Source of the DNA: Bacteroidales bacterium
Lineage (GTDB): Bacteria > Bacteroidota > Bacteroidia > Bacteroidales > P3
NCBI GenBank assembly: GCA_017962665.1
Contig: JAGCUU010000033.1
Location: 1 to 64,000 of the forward strand
Direction: 5' to 3'
Length of the DNA: 64,000 nucleotides
Shown: positions 3,268 through 32,550 of the stretch, piece by piece
Layout: each line of letters opens with the position of its first letter
Position numbering within the stretch: the stretch's first letter is position 1
The notes under the pieces: generated by a model
The model's input: the letters and a program-made list of their open reading frames with translations, nothing else
The model's database searches: none
Told to the model about the DNA's origin: nothing
Made by a program: the position numbers and the translations under genes

Positions 3268-3864
3268 TTAAGGGTATTTCAAAATGTCAATGTACCATAT
3301 TGATTCAATACCCGTACCGGTATGTAGTAAGATACCATAAAGCATCAGTTGTTGTGCCACTATCGGGAGTAGTTTGAAACTTCTATGATAGACCCCATCA
3401 GAGTTAAAAGCCCATGAAATAAGAGAGTCAACATCCATGGATTTAATAAACGACAGAAACTCTTGTGGTTGAGTATCGCAAACGAATGCAACAGACCTAC
3501 CCAACACGCGGTCCCTCCCATATAGATATTCAAAGTCATCAGTGCATATATCTTCCAAGACCTTTTTATCTCTAATAGAGGAGGCAAGCAATTCTCGAAA
3601 ATCATCGTCCGAGATTTCATGTCGATTACTATAACTTGACAATAAAAATATTGTCGGTGAAAGTGTTAGCTTTGCATCAGACAAACTATCACAACGTGTA
3701 TATATTGGAATATAATACCCACGATTTGACAAAGACCAGGTTAGTTTGTCTGTCACTTTCTTCATCAAGACAGAATCTTCATAAATAGTACGACGAGGAC
3801 CTGTTTGAGAGTATGCGGCCTTCACCGCAAATATGCAAAAAAATATTATACAAATCTTTTTCAT
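3268..3864 (-). CDS. Candidate immunity protein 1 (exported, unknown family)
   Basis: The 198-residue protein has a signal peptide (KKICIIFFCIFAVKAAYSQ). I do not recognise the mature part. Its ATG overlaps the stop of Rhs tip 1 by four bases (ATGA), the tight coupling expected of a toxin/immunity pair. It is one of eleven genes in this locus that directly follow an Rhs tip and carry an export signal. The immunity role is inferred only from position and this pattern. Because tip 1 is interrupted, this could be an orphan protective gene. Confidence 0.6.
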   Translation of the reverse strand: MKKICIIFFCIFAVKAAYSQTGPRRTIYEDSVLMKKVTDKLTWSLSNRGYYIPIYTRCDSLSDAKLTLSPTIFLLSSYSNRHEISDDDFRELLASSIRDKKVLEDICTDDFEYLYGRDRVLGRSVAFVCDTQPQEFLSFIKSMDVDSLISWAFNSDGVYHRSFKLLPIVAQQLMLYGILLHTGTGIESIWYIDILKYP

Positions 3865-4880
3865 CTTTTTAATAATTGTTTAATTGGGAATCCATCATAG
3901 GTTTTTCTGGGGTTAGTTCCTCCTAGTGCAGCATAAACCCTATTAGCAGCCTGTACAGCCGAATACTCACCTCTTTCTATTTTTTTCTCTCTTATGACCT
4001 TATAGTAAATGTCTAATTGACCTCCGAAAGCTAAATCAATTGTCATTGTTTTCACGCCAGAATCCCACCTACTACAGAAGATGTCAATCAACCGGCATGT
4101 CGCTTCGCTTCTGTCATATATACCTTGGTCCATTTCATAGGCATGTCATGTTTCATGTGCTAAACCTACAACGGCAGGTCTTTCCCACCCTTCTATTTCT
4201 GTTCGATTTGGATTATACTTAATTAATGTACCACTTCCAATACCATTTGAAATGTCCTTATTACCTTCTGTCCCTGGATCCGTTGAATTAAAATTATCTG
4301 ATAATTCTATTGTGTGTTTCTTTTTCGAACCTTCCAAATGTGTAACTTCCTTGTTCATTCCTTTTTCTTTGAGGGTGTTTAAATCTTTCTGAACTCTGGT
4401 AGCGAAATCGTCATTACCCGTATATTCTGAACCATCTTTATTGTACAGTTTTCCGTTCTTATACTGATATTCATTCCCGTCCGATCCTTTAATCCAGATT
4501 TCCCTTCCATCCGGATCTACCAATTTCACTGGATTCCAAGCGCAATACGCATACGGGCTAATGCTCGGGTACTTGTCCGACATCGGGTCGACACTTAGGA
4601 ACAGTCCCGACAAATCGTTGTCGTAATAGCGGGCACCGAAGTATGAATACCCCGTTTCCTCATCGCGTTGCTCACTGTATTTGGTTTTATTCAGCGGTGT
4701 TCGCCACCCATTACTGGAGCCTTTCCCCGTAGTGTGTTCTGCCGGTGGCCGGACGCACGCGAGCGACGCGACGTGTTGGAATAAGCGTGGCACCAAAGCG
4801 AGCTGCCCCGTAAAAGGGGAACAGAAATTATAAGCGTGTTCTCGCTGTGTCGTCCCGTATGGCAAGCCGCTTGACTCCAT
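3861..4880 (-). pseudogene. Rhs tip 1: M91/zincin-like toxin module broken by a TGA inside its HExxH
   Basis: The frame is continuous from the ATG at 4880 to 3861 except for one TGA at 4146-4148. Upstream is the Rhs core (RDEETGYSYFGARYY to VDPDG, about 4505-4669). Downstream of the stop the frame resumes with HAYEMDQG and RGEYSAVQAANRVY. Reading through, the motif is HET-stop-H, followed by a Glu and a second conserved block, as in NleD-like M91 zinc peptidases. A single TGG or CGA to TGA change explains the break. The 5' edge of its core also lacks the usual FTGKE stretch. The sequence before the core has no signal peptide. Cognate gene: candidate immunity 1. Confidence 0.75.
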
Positions 4881-4942
4881 ATTTTAATAACGTTATAATT
4901 TGCAGATTAGTGTATTCTCAGGGAAAGTCCACTGTAAGAAAG

Positions 4943-5085
4943 CGATTTCCTTTCTGTTGTTATGGACTTGCAATCCGCCATAATCTGGCTCTCTCTTCTG
5001 TTTGTCATTTTTCTCTTATTATATAACGGATTACAAGTCCTTATAGTATTATGCGGCGGAGAGAAGATTCTCCGCAACGGGAAAG
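4943..5085. repeat. Dispersed ~135-bp repeat, copy A, ending in a GC-rich hairpin
   Basis: This stretch between candidate immunity 2 and tip 1 resembles 8334-8466 (roughly three quarters identical by eye). Both begin TTTCCTTTCT, share TTTGTCATTTT, and end in a hairpin followed by GCAACG. Here the hairpin has GCGGAGA (5056-5062) pairing with TCTCCGC (5069-5075). A hairpin of the same type closes the locus at 32576-32594. No gene is seen in 4881-5157. Confidence 0.6.
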
Positions 5086-5157: not shown

Positions 5158-5835
5158 CTATATATCAACACAGACCATTACTGTAACCACATCCCAAATG
5201 GCACAATTTTTTTTCCAAAGAAGAATATCAAAACGTAAACAATCGATATCTTTATTATCAAGAGGCCTTTGACTTTCGATGATATAATATGTATTATTCA
5301 GTTTTATATGTGAAAGTGTAACCGATATTTTGTTAATGGCGAAATGATTATTTGTTCTATAATTAGTCGTGGTAAGGTTATGAAGGTCAATGATTGTTGT
5401 ATTGTATGCTATCTTCTCTTCATATTTGTCGGTTACCGAGTTAGCTGCATTTACGTATATACGAGAATGCTTGGATAGAGTATTAAATGCAATCCGTATT
5501 ACTCCTCTCGAGTCTGATATTTTTTTAATTGTATCATTATCGTTGGAAATAAAAAATGCCGATGCTCCTTTAATAGCCAAATCTTCTTTATTTCTTATTG
5601 ATATTTCCACATCACTGTTGATGAATGAGGAATCATGTTGTAGTGAATATGAACAATAGTAGTAGCAGCTATTTTCAATATTTTGCGTATTATAAAGGTA
5701 ATACACGTATAAACCCGCATCGTTGTTGTCTTGAGAACTAACCGTTTTCGAATACATTAACAACAACAGGCATGCTAATGTCCTAACGGTTTTCCTATAT
5801 GGATTAATACAAATTATATGTTGGATATTTTTCAT
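5158..5835 (-). CDS. Candidate immunity protein 2 (exported, unknown family)
   Basis: The 225-residue protein has a long N-region and a hydrophobic segment ending near SKTVSSQ, a plausible type I signal peptide. The mature part is beta-rich and contains the cluster CYYYCSYS; I do not recognise it. It starts 82 bases after the stop of tip 2 on the same strand. An immunity role against tip 2 is inferred from position and export signal only. Confidence 0.6.
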   Translation of the reverse strand: MKNIQHIICINPYRKTVRTLACLLLLMYSKTVSSQDNNDAGLYVYYLYNTQNIENSCYYYCSYSLQHDSSFINSDVEISIRNKEDLAIKGASAFFISNDNDTIKKISDSRGVIRIAFNTLSKHSRIYVNAANSVTDKYEEKIAYNTTIIDLHNLTTTNYRTNNHFAINKISVTLSHIKLNNTYYIIESQRPLDNKDIDCLRFDILLWKKNCAIWDVVTVMVCVDI

Positions 5836-5917
5836 TGAAACTTATTATTATCGTTTTTATCAGCTTTTCAAGCATACATAGAGATTGTTTGAGCTTCTAT
5901 ATTCCCATTATTAAACT

Positions 5918-6967
5918 CTAAAATAATTGTACGCCTTTATAGTAAAAGCCATCTTTAGGATTTTCACTTGAACGCTCGGGTAATATTCCCGGAGTTTGAC
6001 GTTGATAAAGAAATCCTTCCCTTGCAATTGCACTGTAATGGGCATTTTCGTAATCCATATTATAGTGTGTTCTATAATAATTCTCAGATAATTCATGAAA
6101 TAAAATAGATTTTCTTATACTTGTAACGAAGCCTTTTTTATTGGTTTCTTTCCAATCGCCAGACTTTGCTAAAATAACATGCCCATCATAGCCTTCTTTT
6201 GGAGTATGGGTATACATTCCTCTAGAATCTTTGCCATATAACGAAGCATTGACAATGCCATCCATTGTCAGTTCATCACTTGCCATATTATGAATTAATC
6301 CATCTTTATATGTAGAACTGGCATCATCACTTGATTCATATAAGAATTTCTTGTCCGATGTTACTAAATCGTTTATCAAAGCAAGGCCTTTATCATTTTT
6401 TAACATACCTTTCGTAACTTCTTCCGACAACGACACATTACCATTCTTGTCAAACCGAATATACTTTTTGTATTTGTCTTTGACAAGTGAAATAATATCA
6501 AGTTTAGAAGCATAATAATTTTCATCATCTTCATTGGGAATAAAAAGTTCTCTCCCATCCGGGTCTACCAACTTCACAGGATTCCACGCGCAGTAGGCAT
6601 ACGGGCTAGTGTTCGGATACTTGTCCGCCATCGGGTCGACGCTCAGGAACAATCCCGACAAATCGCTGTCATAATACCTTGCTCCGAAATAGGAAAAGCC
6701 CGTCTCCTCGTCGCGTTCTTTCCCCGTGAAGGGTGTAAGGGTTTGACAAAAAAAGCAATATTGACAATCAATGCTTTCTGCTAGCCAAGAAATGGAGGTT
6801 CCAGCACTGTAGAGGGTGCTGTTTGTGTGGCTTGATATGTGTCTGCCGACGTGCAATGGCTTTGGTTTTATCGGAATAACGTGAGGTGGACGGTTTTGTT
6901 GTCCATATTGGTTTTGTCTGTGTGGAATCGTCGCAAGGTTATTCTTTGTCAGTGTTGAGAATGGCAA
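5918..6967 (-). CDS. Rhs tip 2: orphan core plus zincin-like HELSEN toxin domain
   Basis: The longest frame opens at TTG 6967; no good start or signal peptide is visible, so the module looks like a silent donor rather than an expressed gene. The Rhs core runs about 6554-6731 (TGKERDEETGFSYF to LVDPDG, residues 81-138). The variable domain (139-349) contains FHELSENYYRT (from residue 290) followed by DYENAHYSAIAREG, giving an HE...H spacing that suggests a metal-dependent hydrolase. Tip 3 has a related but degraded block. The ~80 residues before the core resemble nothing else in the locus. Confidence 0.7.
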   Translation of the reverse strand: MPFSTLTKNNLATIPHRQNQYGQQNRPPHVIPIKPKPLHVGRHISSHTNSTLYSAGTSISWLAESIDCQYCFFCQTLTPFTGKERDEETGFSYFGARYYDSDLSGLFLSVDPMADKYPNTSPYAYCAWNPVKLVDPDGRELFIPNEDDENYYASKLDIISLVKDKYKKYIRFDKNGNVSLSEEVTKGMLKNDKGLALINDLVTSDKKFLYESSDDASSTYKDGLIHNMASDELTMDGIVNASLYGKDSRGMYTHTPKEGYDGHVILAKSGDWKETNKKGFVTSIRKSILFHELSENYYRTHYNMDYENAHYSAIAREGFLYQRQTPGILPERSSENPKDGFYYKGVQLF

Positions 6968-7045: not shown

Positions 7046-7492
7046 TCAGTGTCGGCTGCGAAATACAATTTCTTTTTCTCCAACGACAATCTTGCATATT
7101 TTGAATGATATATTTTTTGTGACTACATTAATGAAAAAAAACGTTGGAAGACATACATATTTTTCTGTTGTTATGGAGAAGTTCTCTGTTTTTTCTATTG
7201 TCTGTGTAGTATTGTCTAATTCTACAATTAACGTATCGCTATTTATGCAAGTTGTTTTTATTATACATTGATGGTAACTTTCAAATAGCGGTTTTACAAA
7301 AACGTTGACATCTGCATCATTGGATACAGTTCTAAAATGTATAGGGAATTCTATGTTTTTTGTATTTCTTTTGAAAAAAGTTTTATCTACAACCTGAGTG
7401 GATGCTACCGTATTAAAGGATAGCATCAATATGAGAATCAAAGATCTTATTTTTAGTCGACTAATAATTATGGTCATTTCCATCTCTTTCAT
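7046..7492 (-). CDS. Candidate immunity protein 3 (exported, unknown family)
   Basis: About 148 residues if started at the ATG at 7492; ATGs at 7483 and 7477 also give a good signal peptide (RLKIRSLILILMLSF, ending near VASTQ). The start overlaps the 3' end of tip 3, suggesting translational coupling. The mature domain is small and beta-rich, with no family recognised. The immunity role is inferred from position and export signal. Confidence 0.58.
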   Translation of the reverse strand: MKEMEMTIIISRLKIRSLILILMLSFNTVASTQVVDKTFFKRNTKNIEFPIHFRTVSNDADVNVFVKPLFESYHQCIIKTTCINSDTLIVELDNTTQTIEKTENFSITTEKYVCLPTFFFINVVTKNISFKICKIVVGEKEIVFRSRH

Positions 7493-8315
7493 CTTTTCCG
7501 AGAATACGAAGTGCAACATTTTGATTCCGGACCTTATCTATGCCTGGACTTTCTTTACTGATTTTACCCGTTACAATAGTATTATAAAACTCATCTAATA
7601 ATTCGTGAATAAAAGCCGTACTCACGGGAGTTTGTACTTTTTTTAAATTCCCATAAGAATCTGTTCCAGAAGAGAAAAAATCTGTATTATTATCTCCACG
7701 GTCATTAATAAAAATAATATGGCCTAGTCCTGGTAATTCATCGGTTGAAGTTGCTCCAGACCCTTTCACCAATACTATTTCAGGTTCACACTCATAAAGA
7801 TCGTCTCTTCCATATAATTTAAATTTGTTATTGTTTTCTTGTACAATTATTGTTGTTTTTTTAGAAATCTTTATACACTTCTTTATTCCATTTAATAGTT
7901 TTATTTGGTCTTCTGTTGCAATATTGTTATAATAGTTTTTAAATTCTGACTTGTTTATCTTTAAAACACCATTTTTATTAAAATAAAAAAGATCAGATGA
8001 GCCAAACAGTTGATTCATATACTTGTTAATATAAGCCTCTGTTTTCTTATTATATGCTACTATTTTCTCACCATCCGGATCCACCAGCTTCACCGGATTC
8101 CACGCGCAATATGCATAGGGAGAAATGCTCGGGTACTTGTCCGACATCGGGTCGACGGACAAGAACAGACCGCTGAGGTCGCTGTCGTAATACCTTGCTC
8201 CGAAATAGGAAAAGCCCGTCTCTGAGTCCCGTTCTTTCCCCGTGAAAGATAACTCGGAAAAGTGCCCGAAAAACGTGCAATTTCGAGGGTCGGTTTTATG
8301 TGCTGGTTGGTTCAA
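7461..8315 (-). CDS. Rhs tip 3: orphan core plus HELLDEF zincin-related domain
   Basis: The frame opens at TTG 8315, four codons after an in-frame TAA; no ATG precedes the core, so it is probably not translated in place. The leader NQPAHKTDPRNCTFFGHF is shared with tips 5, 7 and 10. The core is at 8070-8247 (to VDPDG, residues 25-82). The variable domain ends with FIHELLDEFYNT (236-246) and DKVRNQNVALRILG. This parallels tip 2's HELSEN and AHYSAI blocks but lacks the downstream His, so it may be a divergent or inactive relative. Candidate immunity 3 overlaps its 3' end. Confidence 0.68.
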   Translation of the reverse strand: MNQPAHKTDPRNCTFFGHFSELSFTGKERDSETGFSYFGARYYDSDLSGLFLSVDPMSDKYPSISPYAYCAWNPVKLVDPDGEKIVAYNKKTEAYINKYMNQLFGSSDLFYFNKNGVLKINKSEFKNYYNNIATEDQIKLLNGIKKCIKISKKTTIIVQENNNKFKLYGRDDLYECEPEIVLVKGSGATSTDELPGLGHIIFINDRGDNNTDFFSSGTDSYGNLKKVQTPVSTAFIHELLDEFYNTIVTGKISKESPGIDKVRNQNVALRILGKDERDGNDHNY

Positions 8316-8333
8316 ATAATTATTGGTTTATAA

Positions 8334-8547: not shown

Positions 8548-8994
8548 CTATGGCATTTCATTCAATTTGTTTTCCCTTTTTAAATAATCATACAAAAACG
8601 CATCGAATCTTCTATCTTCATTATCTCCAAAATAAAATATTTTAAAACAAGCACAATTTAAATCAATAGAGGGTACGCCGTCCTTCCATACTAAAATTGT
8701 GGGGGATTTAAGGCCAATAGAACTATTATATATTAAGTCGCACATTCCTCTATATAAGGTAGTGTCGCCAATTTTGACAGAGAAACCAGAACACGATATG
8801 CTTCGGGAAACCACTGCTTCCATAGAATCAGGAACAATAAATACAGTATGATTGTCCCAATCATACGTTTTAATATCATACCCAAATATCCAAGGATGCT
8901 CAATGCCATTACTGTCCAACAAACATATCTGTAATTCAACAGGAGGACTTGTGATGAACATAAAAAACAGGATGTTGACAAAACAATTGTTCAT
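8548..8994 (-). CDS. Candidate immunity protein 4 (exported, unknown family)
   Basis: The 148-residue protein has a short signal-like N terminus (NNCFVNILFFMFITSPPVELQ). The mature part is compact, with several Cys residues (CSGFS, CACFK); no family is recognised. It starts 4 bases after tip 4 ends, so the two are almost certainly one transcription unit. Immunity to the cysteine-hydrolase-like tip 4 is inferred from position. Confidence 0.6.
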   Translation of the reverse strand: MNNCFVNILFFMFITSPPVELQICLLDSNGIEHPWIFGYDIKTYDWDNHTVFIVPDSMEAVVSRSISCSGFSVKIGDTTLYRGMCDLIYNSSIGLKSPTILVWKDGVPSIDLNCACFKIFYFGDNEDRRFDAFLYDYLKRENKLNEMP

Positions 8995-8998
8995 ATTG

Positions 8999-9862
8999 TT
9001 ATCTTTTATTATAGTATGGAGTACTATGTCCTATTAATGGTGTAGGAATCCCATAATCATTAAAACGAGTTCCAGCTAAGTTACTATGCTCATAATCTGG
9101 AACATGAAAATCATCTATTTTTTGGATATCCCAATTGTACTTCCATCCATTTTTTGTGAACACATATTGTTGACCCTTTAAGTCGGTACCCATATAAGTT
9201 GCAAAATGAGTTGTTTCTCCTGGATATTTCCCATTTTCACCACTATTTGAGAATCTAACAAGTGTGTTCCCAACATTTGCATCACTTTTTGGGACAGAAA
9301 TTCCATTTACAACTAATATTACATCTGCGTCCATTTTTTTTGCAATCATTTTCCCATTATATCGATAATGTGGATCAACGACCCCATTGGTAAGTATTGA
9401 CATGCTGGTACCCCAACAATTCACATCATTTGTTGGACTATTATTGATTGCATCAGTCATCTCTTGAAAAACGCAACCGTATGATTCTGTAAGATTAATA
9501 ACTCCATTGCTCATTGTCCCATATAAGCATTCAATAACATCCCTATATGCATCACCCATAAAATCACGTAAGGTATTAATGTCGTCTCCGTCCTCAGCTG
9601 TTAAAACAACATTGTTATTTTCATCTAATCCGGGTATCCATTCCCCATTAGGATCTATGTATTTCACAGGATTCCAGGCGCAGTAGGCATACGGACTAAT
9701 GCTCGGATACTTGTCACTCATCGGGTCAACACTCAAGAATAGTCCTGATAAATCGCTGTCGTAGTAGCGCGCACCGAAGTAGGAATACCCTGTTTCCTCA
9801 TCCTTCTCTTTCCCCGTGAAAGAAACACTGCGGTTACGCCCATATTTGCCCCTGTTTTCCAT
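8999..9862 (-). CDS. Rhs tip 4: orphan core plus papain/NlpC-like Cys-His domain
   Basis: The frame starts at ATG 9862 with only 14 residues before FTGKE and no signal peptide. The core is at 9643-9822 and ends VKYIDPNG, a variant of the usual KLVDPDG. The variable domain (74-287) has Cys149 in NCWGTS and His219 in GETTHFATYMG, followed by GQQYVFTKNG. A Cys near the start of a helix and a His in a beta strand followed by a displayed-strand block is the layout of NlpC/P60, CHAP and papain-like hydrolases, so peptidase or peptidoglycan amidase activity is plausible. It is the only tip here with a clear Cys-His rather than metal-type motif. Confidence 0.65.
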   Translation of the reverse strand: MENRGKYGRNRSVSFTGKEKDEETGYSYFGARYYDSDLSGLFLSVDPMSDKYPSISPYAYCAWNPVKYIDPNGEWIPGLDENNNVVLTAEDGDDINTLRDFMGDAYRDVIECLYGTMSNGVINLTESYGCVFQEMTDAINNSPTNDVNCWGTSMSILTNGVVDPHYRYNGKMIAKKMDADVILVVNGISVPKSDANVGNTLVRFSNSGENGKYPGETTHFATYMGTDLKGQQYVFTKNGWKYNWDIQKIDDFHVPDYEHSNLAGTRFNDYGIPTPLIGHSTPYYNKR

Positions 9863-15514: not shown

Positions 15515-15564
15515 ATAGAGAGAATTGGTTGAAAACTATACAAGGATATTGCATTTGTCTAGTT

Positions 15565-16539: not shown

Positions 16540-16561
16540 CCCGACCGCATTTTCTCAGATG

Positions 16562-16593: not shown

Positions 16594-16651
16594 TTGTTGT
16601 ATCTTTATATTTTGACTTCAAAATCATTTTTCAATACAATCATCTGACACA

Positions 16652-25100: not shown

Positions 25101-28100
25101 TGTCACAGCACCGGACGAAGTCGCCTCGGGGCAACCCTACACATGGAAAGCACGATATCCCAGTTTCCGTCGTGCCGTGACATACCGCTTCGACAGGCAA
25201 CATCCGTCGGATACCCTGCGCACGTTCACCTTATGCGACAGGCACATGCGCACCGTCCAAGTCAAGCACGACGCTTCCGTCGCCGGACAGCACAAGCTCC
25301 TTGTCAGCGGCAGGACAGAATACGATGCCCTTGGACGTGCCGTGAGATCCTATGACCCCGGCGTGGAAAATCCTGGAGCAGAAATGTTTTATAATGCAAA
25401 TTCCACAACCTTGCGCTCCGTGGCGGGATATGACATCCTCGACCGTGCAGTGCGGTGTACGACATACCACGACAACTCTATATTGACTGATGTTTCAGAG
25501 TACTCGTATGTGACATCCGGCGGGCGCACCCTTTTCAAGACAAAGTCCACCGACGCTGCGGGACATATCACCAACACTTTTGCAGACGCATTCGGACGTA
25601 ACCTCATGGTCGAAGACGCTCTTGGCGGAATCACGACATTCACTCTTGACAGACTCGGCAATATTTTATCAGTCACCGATCCGGACGACTTTACAACATC
25701 ATATAGCTACGACATGCTTGGAAGGGTGACGGAACGGATACACCCTGACGCAGGACGGACAACAATTGCATACGATTCCGCCGGCAATGTCAAATGGCAG
25801 GTGAATGCCATGGGGGACACCGTGTCGTACCTCTACCATTATTTGCGTCCTGTACGTAAACGCTATTCACGGATACCGGGAAACGAGGTCCGGTGGAGCT
25901 ACGATGCTGCGGGCAGGCTTTCCTCTGCAAAGGACGGAAGCGGCACCACGTCCTACAGCTATGATGCTTTGGGGAACGTGTCCGGAATAGTCGCAACGTT
26001 CGCTATACCATACCTCCCGGGCACATTCTCTTTTGTGACAGAATTCGAATACGACAGTTGGGGACGCACCCTGGACATTACCTATCCTGACGGGGAGCGT
26101 CTGGACTACGAATATGACAGGGGCGGTGAACTGTACTCTGTCAGCGGCACAAAAAACGGCAACACCTACAGCATCGTAAGCAATATATACTATGACATGT
26201 ATGGGAAACGGAGCAGGATGAACTACGGCAACGGGAGCTATACGGTATATAACTATGACGATCTGCATCGACTGTCAAGGCTCAGGAGCTATGCATCAGG
26301 GCATGGCGCGGGAGTCCCTATGCAGGACATCACCTACAGCTATGACAATGTGGGCAACATCACATCCGCTGCCAATGCCGCCGCTGCCATAGGCGCTCTC
26401 GGCGGCACATATACAGACACATACCAGTATGATGACATCAACAGGCTTGTACTTTCCTCGCAGAACTACGGCCAGGGCAACAGTCTCGCCATGTCATACA
26501 CGCCGTCAGGTATGCTGTGCGGCAAGACGCAGACTTTCACCGGCAATGACATGACTTTCGCTTATCAGGATGACGCCGGACACAGGCCTGTGAGAGCGTT
26601 TGAGTCAAACTCTACAAGTCTGTACAATATGCAATGGGACCCCAACGGCAACTTGGCGCAGATCGGCCGTTACACTGTCAACAACGGCATAGCCTCACAT
26701 AAGGGGGAAAGGTACCTCTTATGGACTGAGGACAACAGGCTTGCCAATGTCGTTGACGAAAACAGCTACAGCTACTACGCTTACAGCCATACCGGTGAAC
26801 GCGCGCTTAAACTTACAGGGAAAAACAGCATTGTCGATGTCAACGCGCAGGAAGTTGTATGCAACACTGTACTCGACAATGTTACGCTGTACGTTTCACC
26901 CTACCTTGTAGCGAACAACAAGGGATATACCAAGCACTACTATGCAGGAACAGAGCGGCTGTGTGCCTCTGTCGGTGGTGGAGGTCTCGATGCCTCCTCA
27001 CTGTTCATCGGACTTTCCGACAGCAACAATATAGTGGCGAATGCTTTGTTCAATTCATGCAACAAGTCATTGAAAGACAACAGGCCTTTGGTAGCGTTTT
27101 CCGGTGATCTGCTCGAACTCTGCGAAGACAACCCGGATGAAATCAATACCGGCGTTGACCCGGAACCGACAGCGGTGTCCGCAAACACGGCCATTTATAC
27201 AAACAGTTTCGGCGAAGTGATTGGCTTGTTCGGTGATGTGGTTTCCTCCACTGAAGCAAGATATTTCTACCACGGTGACCATCTGGGCAGTGCCAGCTGG
27301 ATTACCGACGCAAACGGCTCTCCCGTCCAGCATCTGCAGTACCTCCCCTTCGGCGAACCTTTCGTCAACCAGCGTGCCGCAGGTTCCACCTACAGCGAAC
27401 GCTTCACTTTCACGGGGAAAGAGAAGGACGAGGAGACAGGGTATTCCTACTTCGGAGCAAGGTATTATGACAGCGATTTGTCGGGATTGTTCCTGAGCGT
27501 CGACCCGATGGCTGACAAGTACCCGAGCATTAGTCCGTATGCCTATTGCGCCTGGAATCCTGTGAAGTTGGTGGACCCGAATGGAGAAGAAATCAATGTA
27601 TCTTCATTAAATAAGAAACAGCAAGAAAGAATTGTGAAGAATTTGAGTATTGTTACTGGGTTATCTTTGTTTGTTGAAAACGGAAGATTAAAATACAATA
27701 ATGTTTCAGAAAATAATAATGGCTCGAAAAAAGCAAGAAACGATTTGATGAGAGCAATTGATGACAAATCCTTTGTTACAGCTGTTACAGAAAGCAGCTA
27801 CGCGAATAGTTCAAGAGAAAAAGGAGTATATACAAACATCGACAATGGCATAGTTTCGGAAATACAATATGATGCAATTATGGGACTTAATTTTAACAGT
27901 AATCAGGAAGATTATTCCACATATGGACTATCCATGGAGTTCATGCATGAGTTACTGCACTGCTATTACAATTACAAAGACCCTACAAAAAGAGAAAACA
28001 ACAATACGTTCCGAATTAGTCCGAACGGTCAAATAATAATTGCTCTTCCAATTGAAAAAACCATTTCATACCTACTCGGTCGCTCGGCAGTTGGTAGAGT

Positions 28101-28233
28101 AAATGAATACAGAAGAGAACTGGGATTTGACTGTAGGGTAACCTATGCAGGTCTAGATATTGGCATACCCTTTCGTAATTCTGAAGGTGAGTTATATTGG
28201 ATCAAACAAGAAAAGCAAGAAAAAAATGAATAA
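19165..28233 (+). CDS. Full-length Rhs/Tc-type toxin delivery lipoprotein with zincin-like tip 9
   Basis: About 3,022 residues from ATG 19165; ATG 19141 and GTG 19063 are in frame, but 19165 gives the cleanest signal (KKILLALLFAMLF, lipobox-like LFVGC). Order: a domain of unknown type; SpvB-like region from ~214 (GYTPLRTPTANRNGTAELNY); VCBS/FG-GAP repeats (DLDGDGLADK, DINGDGLPDM and others); many YD repeats; then the HGDHLGS block (~2702) and Rhs core 2748-2806 ending VDPNG, the usual Rhs self-cleavage site. The tip (2807-3022) has MEFMHELLHCYY (HExxH 2928-2932) and later RVNEYRRELG, zincin-like with a possible Glu ligand. Known Tc BC and Rhs proteins form a shell around the toxic C terminus. 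DNA is GC-rich to 27584, then abruptly AT-rich. Stop overlaps the immunity start by 8 bases. Confidence 0.88.
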   Translation: MKKILLALLFAMLFPMPLFVGCAEVVDTDEPCAGDAAVPGVADTGADSAAAVVADVRMPDVKVVVRRGKPLRMETEGLALTAADAAVRHSGEYSVTSLFPGELPRLPQGMVNMTAACGGYRLLPSGEHFAPAAELRMTYDPGKIPAGYTPDDIYTSYYDSASQSWVRLERVGVDTVNHEIVSLTTHFTDFINELLKSPEMPETQAFVPTAMKDLEAAHPGNGYTPLRTPTANRNGTAELNYPLDIPPGRNGMQPNLALTYSSSGGGSWLSDGWDIPLSSLSVDTRWGVPRYDADLESDVYLLDGEQLVTFDEDGRVRAMPQRTTDWTERLPDKTRFYSRVDRKYDSIVRHGNNPSNYWWEVYDRTGVVHRYGHYETLNNDSAVSTLCNDRGDIAKWCLAESEDPYGNMVRYTYDTVHDAGINGGIVKGRQIYPAEIRYTMHRDGNGTVDDTGLRRVVFVREDNDVARRHSYCFQLQEPPSAGSCPERIPAAIDCRHGFKEVTASLLTAVEVMWRDTIMQMWRFGMKYGPETGWKVKLTSMGLVVPPEQDYSQWIVSNSLQGKGVMYWGDAQTGDDVLHFVYKEAPDALFGDEVNVGAVWRAHEGGLFPYGEDVKSTGISLDPVGDYAGELSVTALGGMRGYGFSAGGGLSAGLGYSVFWTELTGGGNFNINGSYEEGVLQLVDLDGDGLADKVFRNTFGDVYYRKNMLLPDGTFFYGPAKRLNIDKIIESTTWSSEFGLQLSLGVSLTGSYTHSRTTTTTYFCDINGDGLADLVTDNGAYYNNLVNGLPVFSIARRHSEPGVADTVYSTATPCGYVIHDNAINDSVYCPVVKEVYNKDYAIDANIDSALSVDFISVGIVVDSIRNHVIYGHKLKHDCSEVSKAYDVGLGPRMESVRVWVAPFDGFVTVRDSIRMLPDTTGGVARSRHADGVHRSVQWLHEVTDFVNITIIGTRNDTIGALCGTLGVNDTVWTIHDTTIEVKTGDILFFRLQSGDNRGWDRADWRHTVTYTELSSDADIYGMPVNRYNSVEDFMVSGDNCFQAPAAGKVLLDIDVATGTLQGNSLGVKVCKNGSSIENYNLTSNQTGTIHVSHLGNVLIPVSRGDSIQVKLYGALLNQTTWGRVICKPHYRFIPSSGSEVRDTLSYHIAPNVPYSPFYPSLAYRRLFGPLYRGWGQFTYFAEGTEPSDLINPLTLVYNLGTFSAGDTAGMKEAGLYLDVNNLGFSMDDLSSVMDNTHNYNPLSAFTSRWRRMEADSRLQAWVGFGNSSLLTRTMVTNSFPQELYARDEAAGIKQYDCPAPAPTAEYPKVRTQARVTVSENWNFSGSVGGPVSVGKSSSHGSVDTESDCIDLNGDRYPDIVSGGSVQYTMPYGGLSPHVTAVSYSGSSSGSRSKGVNVSAGDPSQDTRPMFGKTSDRAVLSSVPVRPQGGGGSVAGNDSTSIGFSDINGDGLPDMIKGNGIVRLNIGYGFLPEEVYGSGYMRKGSHFSLSTSASASVPAFSIGKFSIGGGMNIGISDNSVRELLIDIDGDGLADKLELSQSGVTAKLNVGTGQFRTVSCGLPQIGGGYGFNGAANAAVTFGFTYGFAKITASLNGTPYSRTFSCDRVQMIDVNGDGLPDMVTSGGESFMKVRFNLYGQTGLLVGALEGDDTLFTLGYDYEIPTYGMPRGRWVMASCNEKGDPTLGVSDGYTTFSYRNPVHDRFERTDYGYDSVISVHYLASGTAWTPYRVVIEGYCNTDYFKRGEIRSMSVSDPDGHMWDETLHDIVVVNMEDGSIVGDGDCPTVAYPLIKKTITNHYEGFQAPRQTTAVGFEYDSRRNVIVYTEWGDTNFTGDELRADIAYLEGQQRNMISLRGDVTVRGGSRSDSPVMRHSSFSYNTKGGLVLKSDFLDASNSADMHLRYDAYGNVDSVVFPPNASGQRMWMKYTYDPVLHMCLVRTDDAYGRFSTAKYKYRFGKPITVIDAAGNICQYTYDTRGRTETVTAPDEVASGQPYTWKARYPSFRRAVTYRFDRQHPSDTLRTFTLCDRHMRTVQVKHDASVAGQHKLLVSGRTEYDALGRAVRSYDPGVENPGAEMFYNANSTTLRSVAGYDILDRAVRCTTYHDNSILTDVSEYSYVTSGGRTLFKTKSTDAAGHITNTFADAFGRNLMVEDALGGITTFTLDRLGNILSVTDPDDFTTSYSYDMLGRVTERIHPDAGRTTIAYDSAGNVKWQVNAMGDTVSYLYHYLRPVRKRYSRIPGNEVRWSYDAAGRLSSAKDGSGTTSYSYDALGNVSGIVATFAIPYLPGTFSFVTEFEYDSWGRTLDITYPDGERLDYEYDRGGELYSVSGTKNGNTYSIVSNIYYDMYGKRSRMNYGNGSYTVYNYDDLHRLSRLRSYASGHGAGVPMQDITYSYDNVGNITSAANAAAAIGALGGTYTDTYQYDDINRLVLSSQNYGQGNSLAMSYTPSGMLCGKTQTFTGNDMTFAYQDDAGHRPVRAFESNSTSLYNMQWDPNGNLAQIGRYTVNNGIASHKGERYLLWTEDNRLANVVDENSYSYYAYSHTGERALKLTGKNSIVDVNAQEVVCNTVLDNVTLYVSPYLVANNKGYTKHYYAGTERLCASVGGGGLDASSLFIGLSDSNNIVANALFNSCNKSLKDNRPLVAFSGDLLELCEDNPDEINTGVDPEPTAVSANTAIYTNSFGEVIGLFGDVVSSTEARYFYHGDHLGSASWITDANGSPVQHLQYLPFGEPFVNQRAAGSTYSERFTFTGKEKDEETGYSYFGARYYDSDLSGLFLSVDPMADKYPSISPYAYCAWNPVKLVDPNGEEINVSSLNKKQQERIVKNLSIVTGLSLFVENGRLKYNNVSENNNGSKKARNDLMRAIDDKSFVTAVTESSYANSSREKGVYTNIDNGIVSEIQYDAIMGLNFNSNQEDYSTYGLSMEFMHELLHCYYNYKDPTKRENNNTFRISPNGQIIIALPIEKTISYLLGRSAVGRVNEYRRELGFDCRVTYAGLDIGIPFRNSEGELYWIKQEKQEKNE
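27408..27584 (+). repeat. Rhs core repeat (~177 bp), shared by all eleven tips
   Basis: The stretch from TTTCACGGGGAAAGA to the GACCC(G/C)(A/G)ATGG that encodes VDP(D/N)G recurs at about 6554-6731, 8070-8247, 9643-9822, 11302-11480, 12867-13044, 14621-14799 and 16204-16381 (minus strand), 29251-29429 (plus), and incompletely at 4505-4669 (minus) and 30738-30907 (plus). Identity is high inside it and absent after it. It is the obvious place for homologous or site-specific exchange of tips. Confidence 0.9.
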
Positions 28234-29038
28234 AAATAGACAATTAATAATAGTCGTAGTTATGGTCTTATTGTTGTCTTCTTGCAACAAAGGTCATTAT
28301 GTATATATTAGTGCAACAACCCCAGCTTGCGACAGTACTATAGTGAGCAATGCCAAAAAAATGTATCAAAAGATATGCGGAGTGTATAGTTGCGATAGTA
28401 TTCAGATTACAATTTGGCTTTACGATGATGGAACATATGCTGAATGCAACCGATGGGGATGGTTCGGTGGATATTATAAATATGACAAGCCATTGATTAA
28501 TCAGGATTATTACTATATTCGCACAATGGAAAGATACCCATGCGGTAGAGACCAAGTATTAAATAATTTTAAATATGTATATCAGTATAATAACTCAACT
28601 CTTTGCGACAGGTTTTTCGTTTTTGGTAGGGATGGGTCACTTGTTAACATAAAGGCTTTTTGTTATTACGACAGTCTTGACAATGAGAGTTTCAACAACA
28701 TTGTCTGTAATCATAATATTATTCCGTCAAACACAAAATATATCTCAATTTCAGACCTGTCTGTTAATTCCAGTGGCCGTGTTCCTGTCAAAAAAGGATA
28801 CAATATTATTTTCTATCTTAGACCGAACTTTAATAGTTGTAATATTAGATGGAATGACACAAAAGGGTTGTTTTTTGTTTCCGATGATGGAGAAATCCAT
28901 TATTTTAAAAAACGACACTTGGATGCGATGTTAAAAATTGCCCCACCTATAAGTGAAAAAGAAAGTTGTCAGAATGGTACCATTATTAGTTTAGATAAAA
29001 ATATTATTCCACATGATCTCAGGCTCTTTCAGAAGTAA
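28226..29038 (+). CDS. Candidate immunity protein 9 (lipoprotein), cognate of the expressed tip
   Basis: About 270 residues from ATG 28226, overlapping the rhs stop by 8 bases. The N terminus is a clean lipoprotein signal (NRQLIIVVVMVLLLSSC). The mature part has several Cys residues and blocks such as WGWFGGYYKYD; no family is recognised. As the gene coupled to the only full-length rhs, it should protect the producer and its kin from the zincin-like tip 9. The lipobox places it at the periplasmic or outer-membrane face, not in the cytoplasm. Confidence 0.66.
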   Translation: MNKNRQLIIVVVMVLLLSSCNKGHYVYISATTPACDSTIVSNAKKMYQKICGVYSCDSIQITIWLYDDGTYAECNRWGWFGGYYKYDKPLINQDYYYIRTMERYPCGRDQVLNNFKYVYQYNNSTLCDRFFVFGRDGSLVNIKAFCYYDSLDNESFNNIVCNHNIIPSNTKYISISDLSVNSSGRVPVKKGYNIIFYLRPNFNSCNIRWNDTKGLFFVSDDGEIHYFKKRHLDAMLKIAPPISEKESCQNGTIISLDKNIIPHDLRLFQK

Positions 29039-29065
29039 AAGATGAACAATGTTTTGTTTTACAAC

Positions 29066-29429
29066 ATAAAGTAAATGATTGAACTTTACAATGACAATAA
29101 TGACAATCTGTTGTTATACATGACTCATGCTATTTCATGTGAAGACGAGTCACTCTATATTCAAATAAAGAGAAGGGTAGTTAATTGAACCAACCAGCAC
29201 ATAAAACCAACCTGAGAAATTGTACGTTTTTCGGACACTTTTCCGAGTTATCTTTCACGGGGAAAGAACGCGATGAGGAGACGGGGTACGGCTACTTAGG
29301 AGCAAGGTATTATGACAGTGACCTCAGCGGATTGTTTTTGTCCATCGATCCAATGAGTGACAAGTACCCGAACATTAGTCCGTATGCCTACTGCGCCTGG
29401 AATCCTGTAAAATTAGTCGACCCCAATGG
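29066..29429 (+). repeat. Right copy of the ~365-bp inverted repeat (partner at 11302-11666)
   Basis: It begins with ATAAAGTAAATGATTGA, which on the left arm encodes the last residues and stop of candidate immunity 6. Here it follows immunity 9 and codes for nothing in context, so it is the scar of a former cassette. It then carries the same intergenic DNA, the TTG leader and the core. 29039-29184 holds no gene of its own. Confidence 0.85.
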
Positions 29430-30012
29430 CATGGATACAATATTTGTCAACAATGAAGCAAGAAAAATATTCAATAGCGTGTATGATAGAGTATCAAAAG
29501 AAGTTGATAGGCTTGAACGAAAACAAAAAACAACATCGTCACAATATCAATCATTAAAAAAAATGAAAGACGCTTTTACTGATGTTATCAACTCTTCTAC
29601 AAAGTTCTATTTTAAATCTGTAGACAAAGATGAAAAAGGCAATACACTGTTGAAAGGTGGAAATACCTATGGAAAAGTTGGTGTCACTGGTATTTGTGTT
29701 GATTTTGCCAACTATTACGAAGGTAGTTTTATCCATGAACTAAGGCATGCAGCAGGTTATAAAAACGGAGAATGGGATATAGATTTATCAAAAATAGACG
29801 AATATGGACATTTTTATTTAATAAACTATGATTATCAAGATGAGTATGAAGCCTATTATCTTGAAAATCGCTACAACCATCATTTCAATAATGAATTGTT
29901 AAAAGAAGATTATGAAATAAAAACCGAAGTGCGAAAATATAGTAGTTATACAAACATTATTCCCGAATTTATTCAGTATTCGCGTGTAAATCCCTATAAA
30001 CCTCATAATTAA
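29185..30012 (+). CDS. Rhs tip 10: orphan core plus zincin-like HELRH domain
   Basis: The frame starts at TTG 29185, directly after an in-frame TAA, so as it stands it is probably a silent donor. Leader NQPAHKTNLRNCTFFGHF and core (29251-29429, ending KLVDPNG) are followed by a 190-residue variable domain. This has GSFIHELRHAAGY (HExxH at 184-188) and, ~35 residues later, YQDEYEAYYLENRYN, offering a Glu as third zinc ligand. All residues expected of a gluzincin-type site are present. It lies in the same orientation as rhs, so core-to-core recombination would delete tip 9 with immunity 9 and fuse tip 10 to the delivery protein. Confidence 0.7.
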   Translation: MNQPAHKTNLRNCTFFGHFSELSFTGKERDEETGYGYLGARYYDSDLSGLFLSIDPMSDKYPNISPYAYCAWNPVKLVDPNGMDTIFVNNEARKIFNSVYDRVSKEVDRLERKQKTTSSQYQSLKKMKDAFTDVINSSTKFYFKSVDKDEKGNTLLKGGNTYGKVGVTGICVDFANYYEGSFIHELRHAAGYKNGEWDIDLSKIDEYGHFYLINYDYQDEYEAYYLENRYNHHFNNELLKEDYEIKTEVRKYSSYTNIIPEFIQYSRVNPYKPHN

Positions 30013-30710
30013 TGAAAAAAATACTAATAGTTCTATCCCTATCCTTTGCCTTTATTTCATGCAGCAATACTAAGGGATTAGCCGGCTCTTTTGGAGTAAT
30101 ATATGACAACCCGGAGCACGATACTCTTCAGCTTGAAATATATCCAGATGGTTTTATTGTATTCTCTCACCAAAGCGATGGTTTTTGTGGAGAATATCAT
30201 GTTGGTTTTTATGTCATAGCGACGGATTCCAATAATCATTACACATTAAAACCTTCTTCAATATCAAATAATAATATTCCATTAAATGTTACAAAGAAAA
30301 AAAAAGTAGAAGATGGAACCGAATTGGTGTTTAAGGAATTAAGTCCATTCTTTCAATGGAAGTTAATTTTGTTTGATACAGTTATGGAAATATCTGAAAA
30401 AAAGTTAATGCTTGAAAAGGAATACACTACTTTTCAGTTGATGGGATTATTCAAAAAAGAAAACAGATATGTTCATGATACAATCCTAACCGAAAGAAAA
30501 CAAATATTTCAGGGTTATAATAATTATGTCACGATTGATAAGCGATATTATAGCTCAATTCATTATATGGGAACACATAAAGAAGGAATTATCTTTAATA
30601 TGAGGGGAGATGAGATTTTTACGACTACGTCTGGACACAAAATGAAGCGTTTAAAGAAAAAATACTTTGTCTGGGAAAAGATATTAAAAACTGACTCATT
30701 GTGCCATTGA
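30012..30710 (+). CDS. Candidate immunity protein 10 (lipoprotein)
   Basis: The 232-residue protein begins with a lipoprotein signal (KKILIVLSLSFAFISC). Its ATG shares one base with the tip 10 stop (TAATG), typical coupling. The mature part is beta-rich (YPDGFIVFSHQSDGFCGEYH ...), roughly lipocalin-like in feel, but I do not assign a family. Immunity to tip 10 is inferred. Confidence 0.62.
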   Translation: MKKILIVLSLSFAFISCSNTKGLAGSFGVIYDNPEHDTLQLEIYPDGFIVFSHQSDGFCGEYHVGFYVIATDSNNHYTLKPSSISNNNIPLNVTKKKKVEDGTELVFKELSPFFQWKLILFDTVMEISEKKLMLEKEYTTFQLMGLFKKENRYVHDTILTERKQIFQGYNNYVTIDKRYYSSIHYMGTHKEGIIFNMRGDEIFTTTSGHKMKRLKKKYFVWEKILKTDSLCH

Positions 30711-30737
30711 ACTGTCGTACCGTTTGTTCTGTTCATC

Positions 30738-31505
30738 GGCAAGGAAAGAGACTCAGAAACAGTTTTTTCCTAATTAGGCGCTCGCTACTACGACAGTAAT
30801 TTGTTAGGACTGTTCCTCAGTGTCGACCCGATGAGTGACAAGTACCCGAGTCTGTCGCCGTATGCATATTGCGCCTGGAATCCGGTGAAGCTGGTGGATC
30901 CGGATGGGATGGATACAATAGTTTCTATCGACATAAATAATGGTAGTATAAGCGTTGAAAAAAGCGATAAATCCGTTATAGGATGTAGGGTTGACTTTAC
31001 ATATAATGGAGAATTGTTTGATAGTTATTTATGCAAGGGTGATGTAAATAGTACCTCATCAGATAATTCGAAATTTGAATGGAATAGCATTTTCTTTTCT
31101 CAATATCAAGATGCAAATAATGTGTATTCTATTTTGACTGGCAAAAACAATAATAATTTGGAATCAGGTGTGGAGTGGAATTTATATAATTATCAAGCGC
31201 TGGGCTTTTCAGAACTAGTTACTTCTCAAAAAAATAATGAAATCAATCTTACAGGATATAACACATCTCATGTTTCATCCATGAGACATTATCAACCTTA
31301 TGGATTGGGGAATGATTATAGTTATCCGTCAGTAGAAGATTTTAATCATTCGCGCGATTTGAATGTTCCATGTTATCTTGATTACTGTAAAGGTAATAGT
31401 TATAGATATGATAATCTGATACCACATAATGTATCATTGAATAGCTATATTATTAAAGAATCCGTAAATAGAAATATAATACACCATGTATCATCGTGTA
31501 GATAA
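30738..31505 (+). pseudogene. Rhs tip 11: degenerate core plus JAB-like domain (paralogue of tip 6)
   Basis: The core is recognisable from GKERDSET at 30738 but has an in-frame TAA at 30771-30773, where other copies have a Tyr codon (SYFGARYY here reads S-stop-LGARYY). The frame is then open to 31505. The variable domain parallels tip 6 (DGMDTIVSI, RHYQPY, YSYPSVEDF, PCYLDYC, YRYDNLIP). No start codon precedes the stop usefully. Recombination into rhs downstream of the stop, anywhere in the last ~135 bp of the core, would yield an intact chimera. As a donor it may therefore be functional even though it cannot be expressed in place. Confidence 0.68.
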
Positions 31506-32550
31506 TCCAGAAATCGAAACTAAATATCAATATTGCATTTTTTGCTTTTTTTTGTCTTGTGTTTTTTTGTTTTCATGCACAAGTATTGCAACTATAGATA
31601 CCTACGAAACAAAAAACACAAGTGATGTTAAATACAGGGATTCGACTATTTTTTTAAGTAAATATGAAATTGTAAATGATAATTTAGTTGATTCATTAAA
31701 AAATGCAATAGAGTTGTTTAATCATAACGGGGGGTGCTTCCAAGATTCTAATGGATATTATTTTTCATTATCATTTTTACTATCTGCTCTTGACAGTAAT
31801 CTACACATTATTATTAAGGTATGTGGCATGTCTAAATTATGCAGTCACATAAACTTCCCTTTTGATAAAGGAAATGTATCTGAGAAGATAATCGGATGCA
31901 CGTATGTCGACAACTATCTGATTCTTATCTCAAGCTATACTTTTGTCCCATTTTCCGAACTATACGAATATATAAACAAGTCAAATGGATTATTTGAAAT
32001 TGCAATGAATTGCAATTCCGATGATAACACTATATATACAGCCCGAACCGACTCACCTTTTCACCACCATGAAATATTGATGCCGTTAAAATCCGACACC
32101 TCATATAATCCATCATATAAACCTGTTTATACTGTACAAAAAAAAATATATAATATATTACGATTCATGTCAAACATAGAGGCCCAGAATTTTTCATGGA
32201 TAGAATGTACACCGAAAGATCCTGAAAACAAAAGGCAAGAATCAAAATGTCTAAAAATGATTGAAGAATTATACGACAGCTTATCGTTTGACTCTTTTTC
32301 TTCCAATGGAAAAATTATAATTTATGGAAAAAAATATAATGCGGAGGGTTTGAGTGGAAATATTTTTGCAGAAATGAAAAAATTGGATAACCTGTTAAAG
32401 GAATTTAGACAACAAATCATTAATTCCAGTATGAGTGACGATGAAATAATAAACAATCTTTTATGGGAGGAAATAACTGTGCAAGCTGGAGAGGTACTGA
32501 AAGAATGGAATCAAAGGGACAGAAACTTTGATACACGTAGTGGCAATTAG
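31486..32550 (+). CDS. Candidate immunity protein 11 (lipoprotein, long form)
   Basis: The 354-residue protein starts inside the end of tip 11 (20-base overlap). The N terminus leads to a hydrophobic stretch and the lipobox FLFSC at about residue 31. The first ~200 mature residues parallel candidate immunity 6 (IGCTYVDNYLILISSYTF, EYINKSNGLFEIAMNC). The last ~130 residues are a charged, helical extension absent from protein 6. Tip and immunity are thus duplicated together on the two arms. Family unknown. Confidence 0.66.
   Translation: MYHRVDNPEIETKYQYCIFCFFLSCVFLFSCTSIATIDTYETKNTSDVKYRDSTIFLSKYEIVNDNLVDSLKNAIELFNHNGGCFQDSNGYYFSLSFLLSALDSNLHIIIKVCGMSKLCSHINFPFDKGNVSEKIIGCTYVDNYLILISSYTFVPFSELYEYINKSNGLFEIAMNCNSDDNTIYTARTDSPFHHHEILMPLKSDTSYNPSYKPVYTVQKKIYNILRFMSNIEAQNFSWIECTPKDPENKRQESKCLKMIEELYDSLSFDSFSSNGKIIIYGKKYNAEGLSGNIFAEMKKLDNLLKEFRQQIINSSMSDDEIINNLLWEEITVQAGEVLKEWNQRDRNFDTRSGN

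What the first reader, a model, noticed from the sequence alone, without database searches (positions are those of the whole stretch)
3268..32550. Eleven-module Rhs toxin-tip array around one delivery gene and a recombinase
One full-length SpvB/YD-repeat delivery gene is surrounded by ten orphan tip/immunity modules that share its last ~177 bp of core. Eight are inverted on its left, two follow it on the right, and an intact tyrosine recombinase sits between. Orphan Rhs tips with immunity genes are known in enterobacteria. An opposed two-arm array with its own recombinase, in a Bacteroidota genome with a T9SS-sorted partner gene, is to my knowledge not a described system. It looks like a toxin-cassette exchange locus.
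Basis: partly seen in the sequence, partly recalled or inferred. Interest (0 to 1): 0.95.

Follow-up and report, generated by a model that had tools for sequence, protein, structure and literature searches.

The report
Recombinase-linked two-arm toxin-tip cassette array
A gut bacterium keeps ten spare toxin tips, each with its antidote gene, in two opposed rows around one toxin-delivery gene and a DNA recombinase, a layout seen in related species and probably used to swap the tip that is delivered.

Summary
In detail: eight Rhs-core tip/immunity modules (minus strand), an intact tyrosine recombinase, a T9SS-tagged protein gene, a 3056-aa SpvB/YD-repeat delivery gene, two more modules. It recurs: of 16 GTDB loci with recombinases at least 54% identical, 15 hold Rhs cores and 12 have an opposed core just upstream of the recombinase; 20 of 22 distinct spacers between them carry a TAnnTTTG promoter box. 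The first ~12 core bases match within arrays but differ between arrays; 9 of 11 window copies are identical there, the exceptions being the outermost, decayed modules. In six young pairs (upstream at least 97% identical, tips unrelated) identity breaks within 26 bases of the core start, for L5/R1 of the two window arms at base 14; one young tip transfer breaks at the core's other end. Tip families change context between species (24 of 30). I read it as a shufflon-like toxin-tip exchange locus: recombination between opposed cores flips the central unit. Recombination was not seen, integron-like insertion is not excluded, and arrays without intact recombinase are common.

The parts
3268..4730 (-). 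Module L1 (outermost left, decayed): immunity-like ORF 3268-3864, tip fragment 4146-4505, core 4489-4669, ~50-bp insert just upstream of 4671
   Evidence: (partial Peptidase_M91)
5158..6840 (-). Module L2: immunity 5158-5835, tip 5918-6553, core 6554-6730, boundary element b 6733-6840
7046..8322 (-). Module L3: immunity 7046-7519, tip 7461-8069, core 8070-8246, boundary element a 8236-8322
8548..9820 (-). Module L4: immunity 8548-8994, tip 8999-9643, core 9644-9820; no element a or b recognised in front
10011..11554 (-). Module L5: immunity 10011-10712, tip 10639-11301, core 11302-11478, boundary element a 11468-11554
11650..13152 (-). Module L6: immunity 11650-12288, tip 12263-12865 (related to R2 tip, 41% aa), core 12866-13042, boundary element b 13044-13152
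13348..14873 (-). Module L7: immunity 13348-14091, tip 14027-14620, core 14621-14797, boundary element a 14787-14873
14909..16539 (-). Module L8, next to the recombinase: immunity 14909-15514; ORF 15565-16539 = leader + core 16204-16380 + Peptidase_M91 tip
16381..16651 (-). Spacer between recombinase start and L8 core (271 bp): TATTTTTG box 16569-16562 with a TTG 20 nt upstream, in-frame ATG at 16539 facing the left arm
16652..17644 (+). Tyrosine recombinase, 330 aa (Phage_int_SAM_5 + Phage_integrase; nearest NCBIfam models XerA, XerD, XerC, all below cut-off)
17755..19056 (+). 433-aa protein with a T9SS type A sorting domain
19063..28233 (+). Delivery gene: SpvB, FG-GAP, RHS/YD repeats; core 27409-27585; fused tip 27586-28233 with an HELLH motif
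27409..27422 (+). Candidate recombination site at the core start of the delivery gene: TTCACGGGGAAAGA, identical in 9 of 11 window copies
28160..29038 (+). Immunity-like lipoprotein ORF of the fused tip (real start probably further in)
29178..30710 (+). Module R1: boundary element a 29178-29264, core 29254-29430, tip 29431-30012 (HELRH), immunity 30012-30710
30730..32550 (+). Module R2 (outermost right; decayed core start, in-frame TAA in the core): core 30732-30908, tip 30909-31505, immunity 31486-32550

Best explanation
A self-contained toxin-tip exchange locus. One SpvB/YD-repeat protein delivers whichever C-terminal tip is joined to its core; ten other tip/immunity cassettes wait in two outward-pointing arms. 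The recombinase encoded in the central unit (spacer, recombinase, T9SS-tagged protein, delivery body) recombines short sites at the 5' edge of the cores (TTCACSGGSAARGA, of which CACSGGS is a candidate 7-bp crossover region). Because the arms are opposed, crossing the delivery core with a left-arm core inverts everything between: the delivery gene then reads into that left-arm tip, and the former tip becomes the first orphan of the other arm. This works like the R64 shufflon, which selects alternative C-terminal ends of PilV. Several orphan tips have a stop just in front and no evident start, while immunity ORFs have their own starts and export signals; the recombinase-proximal module has its own promoter and leader. 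Shown: anatomy, its recurrence, the array-matched core start, junctions between identical upstream DNA and unrelated tips at that edge, tip context changes between species. Inferred: that this recombinase acts at these sites, that inversion is the main product, that the tips are toxins acting in the periplasm.
For: Arms point away from the recombinase/delivery unit in the window and in L026/L027, L037 and L078, which have long recombinases and delivery genes. Recombinase start and opposed core are 247-271 bp apart in 16 of 22 distinct spacers, with TAnnTTTG in 20 of 22 and a TTG 16-24 nt in front of it in 11 of 22. Third positions 6, 9, 12 of the core mismatch within arrays at 0.162 against 0.450 for shuffled arrays (z -8.3; 31 arrays, 104 cores); the ratio rises from 0.36 to 0.93 towards the 3' end. 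The first codon is TTC in 102 of 102 F codons, against 87 of 104 at codon 15. Six young pairs (last 100 upstream bases at least 97% identical, tips unrelated) break at core positions 5, 8, 8, 14, 20 and 26; they include window L5/R1 from opposite arms (14, range 3-15) and four pairs with recombinase-type spacers. The same spacer/recombinase stretch, 98.7% identical in G087 and G065, stops matching 14 bases into the core. Conserved centre and right side with variable left side is the described design of R64 sfx sites (passages). Window tips in other contexts elsewhere: D tip an orphan in L035; L8 delivery-type in L033; L6/R2 on a 2807-aa frame in L063; L7 and L2 recombinase-proximal in L045 and L028. 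All 11 immunity ORFs have a hydrophobic stretch within the first 40 residues; L1 and L8 tips match Peptidase_M91.
Against: No recombination event was observed; flank genes are not next to arrays in the stretches fetched from other species. Cores occur in 66 of 99 genus genomes but the recombinase in 20 of 120 at E<=1e-40, and several centres are collapsed with recombinase fragments. Breakpoints are not all at the edge: the 14 less similar pairs spread from 11 to 162, and the youngest tip transfer found (tip identical over 150 nt, G087 and G070) breaks at core position 165, the 3' end, as plain homologous recombination would give. The six young pairs are not independent (three come from three copies of one spacer). 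In G111, G008 and G070b the delivery core differs from its array within the first nine bases. L030 has a delivery fragment pointing towards an arm, not away. Mixing of tip contexts is about what random labels give (24 against 20.3 +- 2.2). Element a was found at 4 window junctions and b at 2; L4 has neither.
Confidence: 0.5

Rival explanations
1. Integron-like capture: the recombinase excises circular cassettes (tip, immunity, boundary element) at cores and inserts them at two docking sites, the recombinase-proximal core behind the spacer promoter and the delivery core. Orientation away from the recombinase follows automatically.
For: Recombinase with a divergent promoter box beside the first cassette; a palindromic boundary element with covariation (74.0% of cells paired, covariation 0.166 against 0.117 +- 0.011, 0 of 500 shuffles) whose 8 full-length copies in the own genome all lie at Rhs core starts and nowhere else; not found in 197 other genomes of the order; elements also at module ends with no intact core detected behind (13 of 42 hits).
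Against: The recombinase is far below the integron-integrase cut-off (59.8 of 265 bits). No delivery or spacer core shows the element (best spacer hit E 0.59). Element a may be a terminator: the pattern scan flags 2 of the 3 left-arm copies.
Confidence: 0.22
2. Plain homologous recombination: orphan modules pile up by RecA-dependent exchange and displacement at the shared core, and the recombinase is a passenger or acts elsewhere.
For: Orphan arrays are known in loci for which no recombinase is described (Poole 2011, passages); arrays with broken or undetected recombinase persist in the genus; array identity falls off as a gradient; breaks at 38-162 in less similar pairs and one young tip transfer breaking at core position 165.
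Against: Linkage and near-fixed spacing of the recombinase to opposed cores; array identity is highest at the last bases before homology ends; six of six young pairs defined by upstream identity break within 26 bases of that edge.
Confidence: 0.23
3. A relic: tips and immunity genes kept only as a bank of immunity against neighbours, with no present exchange.
For: Outermost modules decayed; collapsed central units in the genus; all 11 immunity ORFs keep export-like N-termini.
Against: Recombinase, delivery frame and 9 of 11 core starts are intact in the window; young exchanges exist in relatives.
Confidence: 0.05

Closest known systems
Orphan cdiA-CT/cdiI and rhs tip/immunity arrays (Poole et al. 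2011, PMC3150448; passages seen)
   Same: A full-length delivery gene followed by orphan tip/immunity pairs that start at the shared junction and mostly lack translation starts; up to eleven orphan pairs in one locus.
   Different: There the orphans lie downstream of the delivery genes, the words recombinase and integrase do not occur in the main text held, and the exchange mechanism is called unknown. Here two opposed arms flank a unit with its own recombinase, promoter spacer and boundary elements.
R64 shufflon, recombinase Rci and sfx sites (PMC11852207; passages seen)
   Same: Tyrosine recombinase beside a set of alternative C-terminal ends for one gene; sites with conserved 7-bp centre and right arm and variable left arm.
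   Different: PilV ends are adhesins, no immunity genes (recalled); only C-terminal segments invert, whereas here the delivery gene and recombinase themselves would lie on the invertible piece. No recombination shown here.
Integrons
   Same: Recombinase gene diverging from a promoter that faces an array of co-oriented cassettes; palindromic element at cassette boundaries (general features recalled).
   Different: Not an integron integrase by score; the site lies inside a coding core; two arms instead of one.
rAID clusters of Bacteroidales (PMC12247911, passages) and polyimmunity loci beside XerC/D (PMC3482391, passages)
   Same: Tyrosine recombinase with arrays of immunity genes and, in rAID, conserved intergenic motifs.
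   Different: rAID holds orphan immunity genes, co-oriented, and is described without toxin tips or a delivery gene; here each immunity gene has its tip and one tip is fused to a delivery protein.
Bacteroides fragilis SusC/SusD and type I R-M shufflons (PMC11852207 and PMC5729914, passages)
   Same: Inversion-driven choice between alternative genes in Bacteroidota.
   Different: Other cargo; no toxin/immunity cassettes.

Membership tests
Polymorphic toxin of the TcdB/TcaC (SpvB) type | SpvB domain, integrin-like repeats, RHS repeats, variable C-terminal tip followed by an immunity gene | tested here: met
   Pfam SpvB 5.5e-24, RHS_repeat 2e-18, FG-GAP_3 1.8e-13; Rhs_assc_core; tips of relatives differ. 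Toxicity and immunity not tested.
Orphan tip/immunity array | Several tip fragments sharing the pre-tip core of a full-length gene, each with a small gene behind it | tested here: met
   Ten modules; immunity function inferred from position and export-like N-termini
R64-type shufflon | Recombinase gene next to opposed copies of a short common site | tested here: met
R64-type shufflon | Site with conserved centre and right arm and variable left arm | tested here: inconclusive
   Pattern fits but the site borders are inferred and some breakpoints lie elsewhere in the core
R64-type shufflon | Inversions observed | not testable with these tools
   No reads or strain pairs
Integron | IntI-type integrase | tested here: not met
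   TIGR02249 59.8 bits against cut-off 265; PRK15417 39.8 against 435
Integron | attC-like folded site at each cassette boundary | tested here: inconclusive
   Palindrome with covariation at 4 window junctions, another element at 2; terminator not excluded
rAID cluster | Tyrosine recombinase upstream of co-oriented immunity genes without toxins | tested here: not met
   A tip precedes every immunity ORF; two opposed arms
rAID cluster | Recombinase homologous to the rAID recombinase | not tested
   The B. fragilis reference was not at hand

The most novel reading that the evidence does not exclude
A dedicated DNA-rearrangement system for polymorphic toxins: a tyrosine recombinase of its own clade, encoded on the invertible unit together with the delivery gene, recombines array-matched sites at the edge of Rhs cores and so switches the delivered toxin within a clonal population, while a second promoter on the same unit reads the opposite arm.
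Probability: 0.4. Interest if true: 0.92.

Novelty: new variant of a known kind. Interest (0 to 1): 0.8.

Why it matters
How delivery genes of polymorphic toxins exchange tips with orphan cassettes is an open question; Poole et al. 2011 call the mechanisms unknown (passage). This family would give one lineage a dedicated machine for it, with predicted sites, a predicted product and a simple plasmid test. It would also mean that a clonal gut population can vary its toxins as others vary pili or surface proteins, and it joins three things usually kept apart: orphan toxin arrays, shufflons and recombinase-linked immunity banks.

Tried and rejected
Phage origin of the recombinase: no relative in viral contigs; the anti-phage defence library gave nothing for six window proteins. 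Orientation test against outer flanks: SstT-like and DJ-1-like flank genes occur in 69 and 88 of 99 genus genomes but not in the array stretches fetched, so no inversion could be scored. T9SS machinery: the SprA_N search was silent in the own genome and in all controls, so it says nothing; 35 Por_Secre_tail matches argue for a working T9SS. RNAalifold alone found only 3 pairs in element a; the 21-pair palindrome was read by eye from the common genus form and then counted, so it leans towards that form, and single-sequence folding of the window copies is weak (z about 0). More distant recombinases (63 loci, at most 36% identity) have cores in 4 loci, none at the usual spacing. An attI-like palindrome in the spacer: no consistent inverted repeat seen by eye.

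Caveats on counts. Context labels are automatic; 'delivery' includes truncated delivery fragments. The 7 long delivery frames (2807-3058 aa) are those in the listed part, whose list was cut. One search used 104 of the 134 cores (177-nt cores, duplicates within an array removed, arrays with at least two copies). Array structure does not vanish downstream: the four downstream blocks still give z -7.0, -3.6, -3.7 and -2.9. The genus surveys used the 99 to 120 genomes held, one per species; 40 stretches were fetched, chosen by hand from places listed. Element models were trained on sequences taken in front of cores: the HMM on 81 of them, A3 on 33 of the 46 listed, and all 8 own-genome copies are in A3; so the independent part is that no further copy lies elsewhere. 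For element b, 9 of the 10 hits at cores are its own seed sequences.

Literature: ten library searches listed no paper whose title or abstract start describes such a locus; papers were seen as found passages only. The first rAID paper was not seen.
Full report
What is there. The window lies in contig C15 of a 1.88-Mb, 41-contig genome, 77% complete; its nearest named recombinase relatives are Bacteroidales or Bacteroidetes MAGs. Eleven copies of a ~177-bp Rhs core were found: eight on the minus strand between 4489 and 16387, one inside the delivery ORF (27409-27585) and two behind it. Each is followed by a tip and then a small ORF. Within the window only the L6 and R2 tips are related (41% identity) and, weakly, their immunity ORFs (27%). 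Tips L1 and L8 match Peptidase_M91; D, R1 and L8 have HExxH motifs. All eleven immunity ORFs have a hydrophobic stretch within the first 40 residues, several with a lipobox-like motif, so the toxins probably act outside the cytoplasm (inference). Between the arms stand the recombinase, a T9SS-tagged protein and the delivery gene, all on the plus strand.

It is a family. Sixteen loci in the GTDB contig collection carry recombinases at least 54% identical; the seven titles that name an animal name a ruminant (sheep 3, red deer 2, yak, reindeer). Fifteen of 16 have an Rhs core in the fetched stretch and 12 of 16 have it in opposed orientation just upstream of the recombinase. In the genus, 20 of 120 genomes have the recombinase at E<=1e-40 and 66 of 99 have cores. 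The order spacer, recombinase, T9SS-tagged protein, delivery gene recurs, for example in L026/L027, L037, L074, L078 and L080. Other loci have a collapsed centre: a recombinase fragment (for example residues 1-39, 1-47, 1-110, 1-135, 1-170) and a C-terminal piece of the delivery gene, with the spacer kept. One locus, L030, has a delivery fragment that points towards an arm.

The spacer. Recombinase start and opposed core are 247-271 bp apart in 16 of 22 distinct cases; the other six range from 168 to 352. TAnnTTTG, which I recall as the -7 element of Bacteroidota promoters, faces the core in 20 of 22; a TTG lies 16-24 nt in front of it in 11. In the window an in-frame ATG lies 22 bases behind it (16539), so the recombinase-proximal module is a leader-core-tip ORF of 324 aa. 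The three kinds of sequence in front of cores (delivery, spacer, intermodule) are unlike one another, yet mostly meet the core at the same base.

The site. Over 117 cores of 177 nt, the first codon is TTC in 102 of 102 F codons, and codons 2 and 3 use almost only ACC/ACG and GGC/GGG. Within-array diversity divided by between-array diversity is 0.27, 0.33 and 0.48 at positions 6, 9 and 12, and mostly 0.75-1.1 after position 90. Against shuffled arrays the third positions 6, 9, 12 give z -8.3 and ratio 0.36; the ratio is 0.68 for positions 15-30 and then 0.86, 0.86 and 0.93. In the window nine of eleven copies read TTCACGGGGAAAGA although the cores are only about 73-90% alike; the two that differ are L1 and R2, the ends of the arms. 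TCTTT-CACSGGS-AAAGA is a possible inverted repeat around a 7-bp centre in many but not all copies (read).

Breakpoints. One search compared all pairs of cores with alike upstream DNA and unrelated tips: 20 pairs qualified. The six youngest (last 100 upstream bases at least 97% identical) break at core positions 5, 8, 8, 14, 20 and 26. One of them is window L5 against R1, one from each arm (break 14, range 3-15). Three of them involve the same spacer in two species (G087 twice, G065 once), 98.7% identical over 675 bp up to base 14 of the core. The other 14 pairs, 85-94% alike upstream, break at 11 to 162. Seen from the other side, one tip identical over 150 nt in G087 and G070 sits on cores only 80% alike with the break at 165. 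So the 5' edge is the favoured place in the youngest cases, and exchange elsewhere in the core happens too. That fits a site-specific recombinase plus ordinary homologous recombination; it does not prove the first.

Boundary elements. An 87-bp element a lies directly in front of L3, L5, L7 and R1. Its 21-pair imperfect palindrome has 74.0% of cells paired and covariation 0.166, against 0.117 +- 0.011 in shuffles (0 of 500) and at most 0.099 when slid. A covariance model finds 8 full-length copies in the own genome, all at Rhs core starts, 4 of them in two further module groups on C1 and C16; all 8 were in its training set, so what is new is that there is no other copy. At E<=1e-4 it is in 39 of 119 genus genomes and in none of 197 other genomes of the order (stricter filters). 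A second element b precedes L2 and L6 and cores in other species (nearly all hits are its seeds). Element a could be a terminator, a recombination element or both; the scan flags 2 of 3 left-arm copies as terminator-like. L5 and R1 share 367 bp at 89% including this region. A ~50-bp insert sits behind the first ~13 core bases in several array-end modules, window L1 among them.

Exchange between species. Of 122 tips from the fetched loci, 85 fall in 30 families of two or more. 24 of 30 families occur in more than one context (delivery-type, recombinase-proximal, other orphan), and all 24 span genomes. Shuffled labels would give 20.3 +- 2.2 mixed families: tip family and context are unlinked. 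Of the 7 long delivery frames listed, 6 carry a tip family that is an orphan or recombinase-proximal tip elsewhere (window, G119, G002, G022, G115, G014; not G122). Most of these are old events.

How it most likely works. Cores in opposed arms are inverted repeats; recombination between the delivery core and a left-arm core would invert the unit between them, hand the delivery gene a new tip and park the old one at the head of the right arm. That rule by itself keeps orphans pointing outward and keeps spacer and delivery edge fixed to the unit, as seen. The R64 shufflon is the closest working model. Cassette excision and insertion would give the same orientations and a use for boundary elements. 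RecA alone explains the breaks inside the core but neither the recombinase linkage nor the matched edge. Which process dominates cannot be settled without reads.

Novelty. Orphan arrays, shufflons in Bacteroidota and recombinase-linked immunity arrays are known. The searches named under Tried and rejected listed no description of toxin tips with a delivery gene in a recombinase-centred two-arm array; most subscription papers are not in that library. I file it as a new variant of a known kind, with a fair chance that it deserves more.

Noticed in passing
own genome C1 (L046:8119 and 10490) and C16 (L047:288, 1613, 3175, 4630): Two further Rhs module groups in the same genome; C1 cores are 98% identical in protein to the delivery core and share its TTCACGGGG start; C16 has its own TTCTCCGGG start in 3 of 4 cores and a spacer-like module without a detected recombinase.
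   Followed up: partly
window 4671-4730 and L045:13154, L045:4643, L036:12370, L040:3660, L041:8410, L056:9142: A recurrent ~50-bp insert (GCACCCCGTAAGGGG...CTGAATA...GAG) right behind the first ~13 bases of the core, often in array-end modules; in some copies followed by a broken core or a delivery fragment.
   Followed up: partly
L045 (G087) 6132-9762: Spacer plus the N-terminal 135 residues of the recombinase occur twice with a module between, so the centre itself can be duplicated.
   Followed up: partly
L035:1688-2055 and L089:2165-2728: Orphan cores lie directly against a recombinase fragment (N-terminal 78 residues in front of a core; residues 203-329 behind one), as if modules had landed in the recombinase gene.
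   Followed up: no
window 100-1017 and 34836-36644: ORFs that look caspase-like by eye (YYAGHG and similar motifs; recalled, not searched) lie on both outer sides of the array.
   Followed up: no
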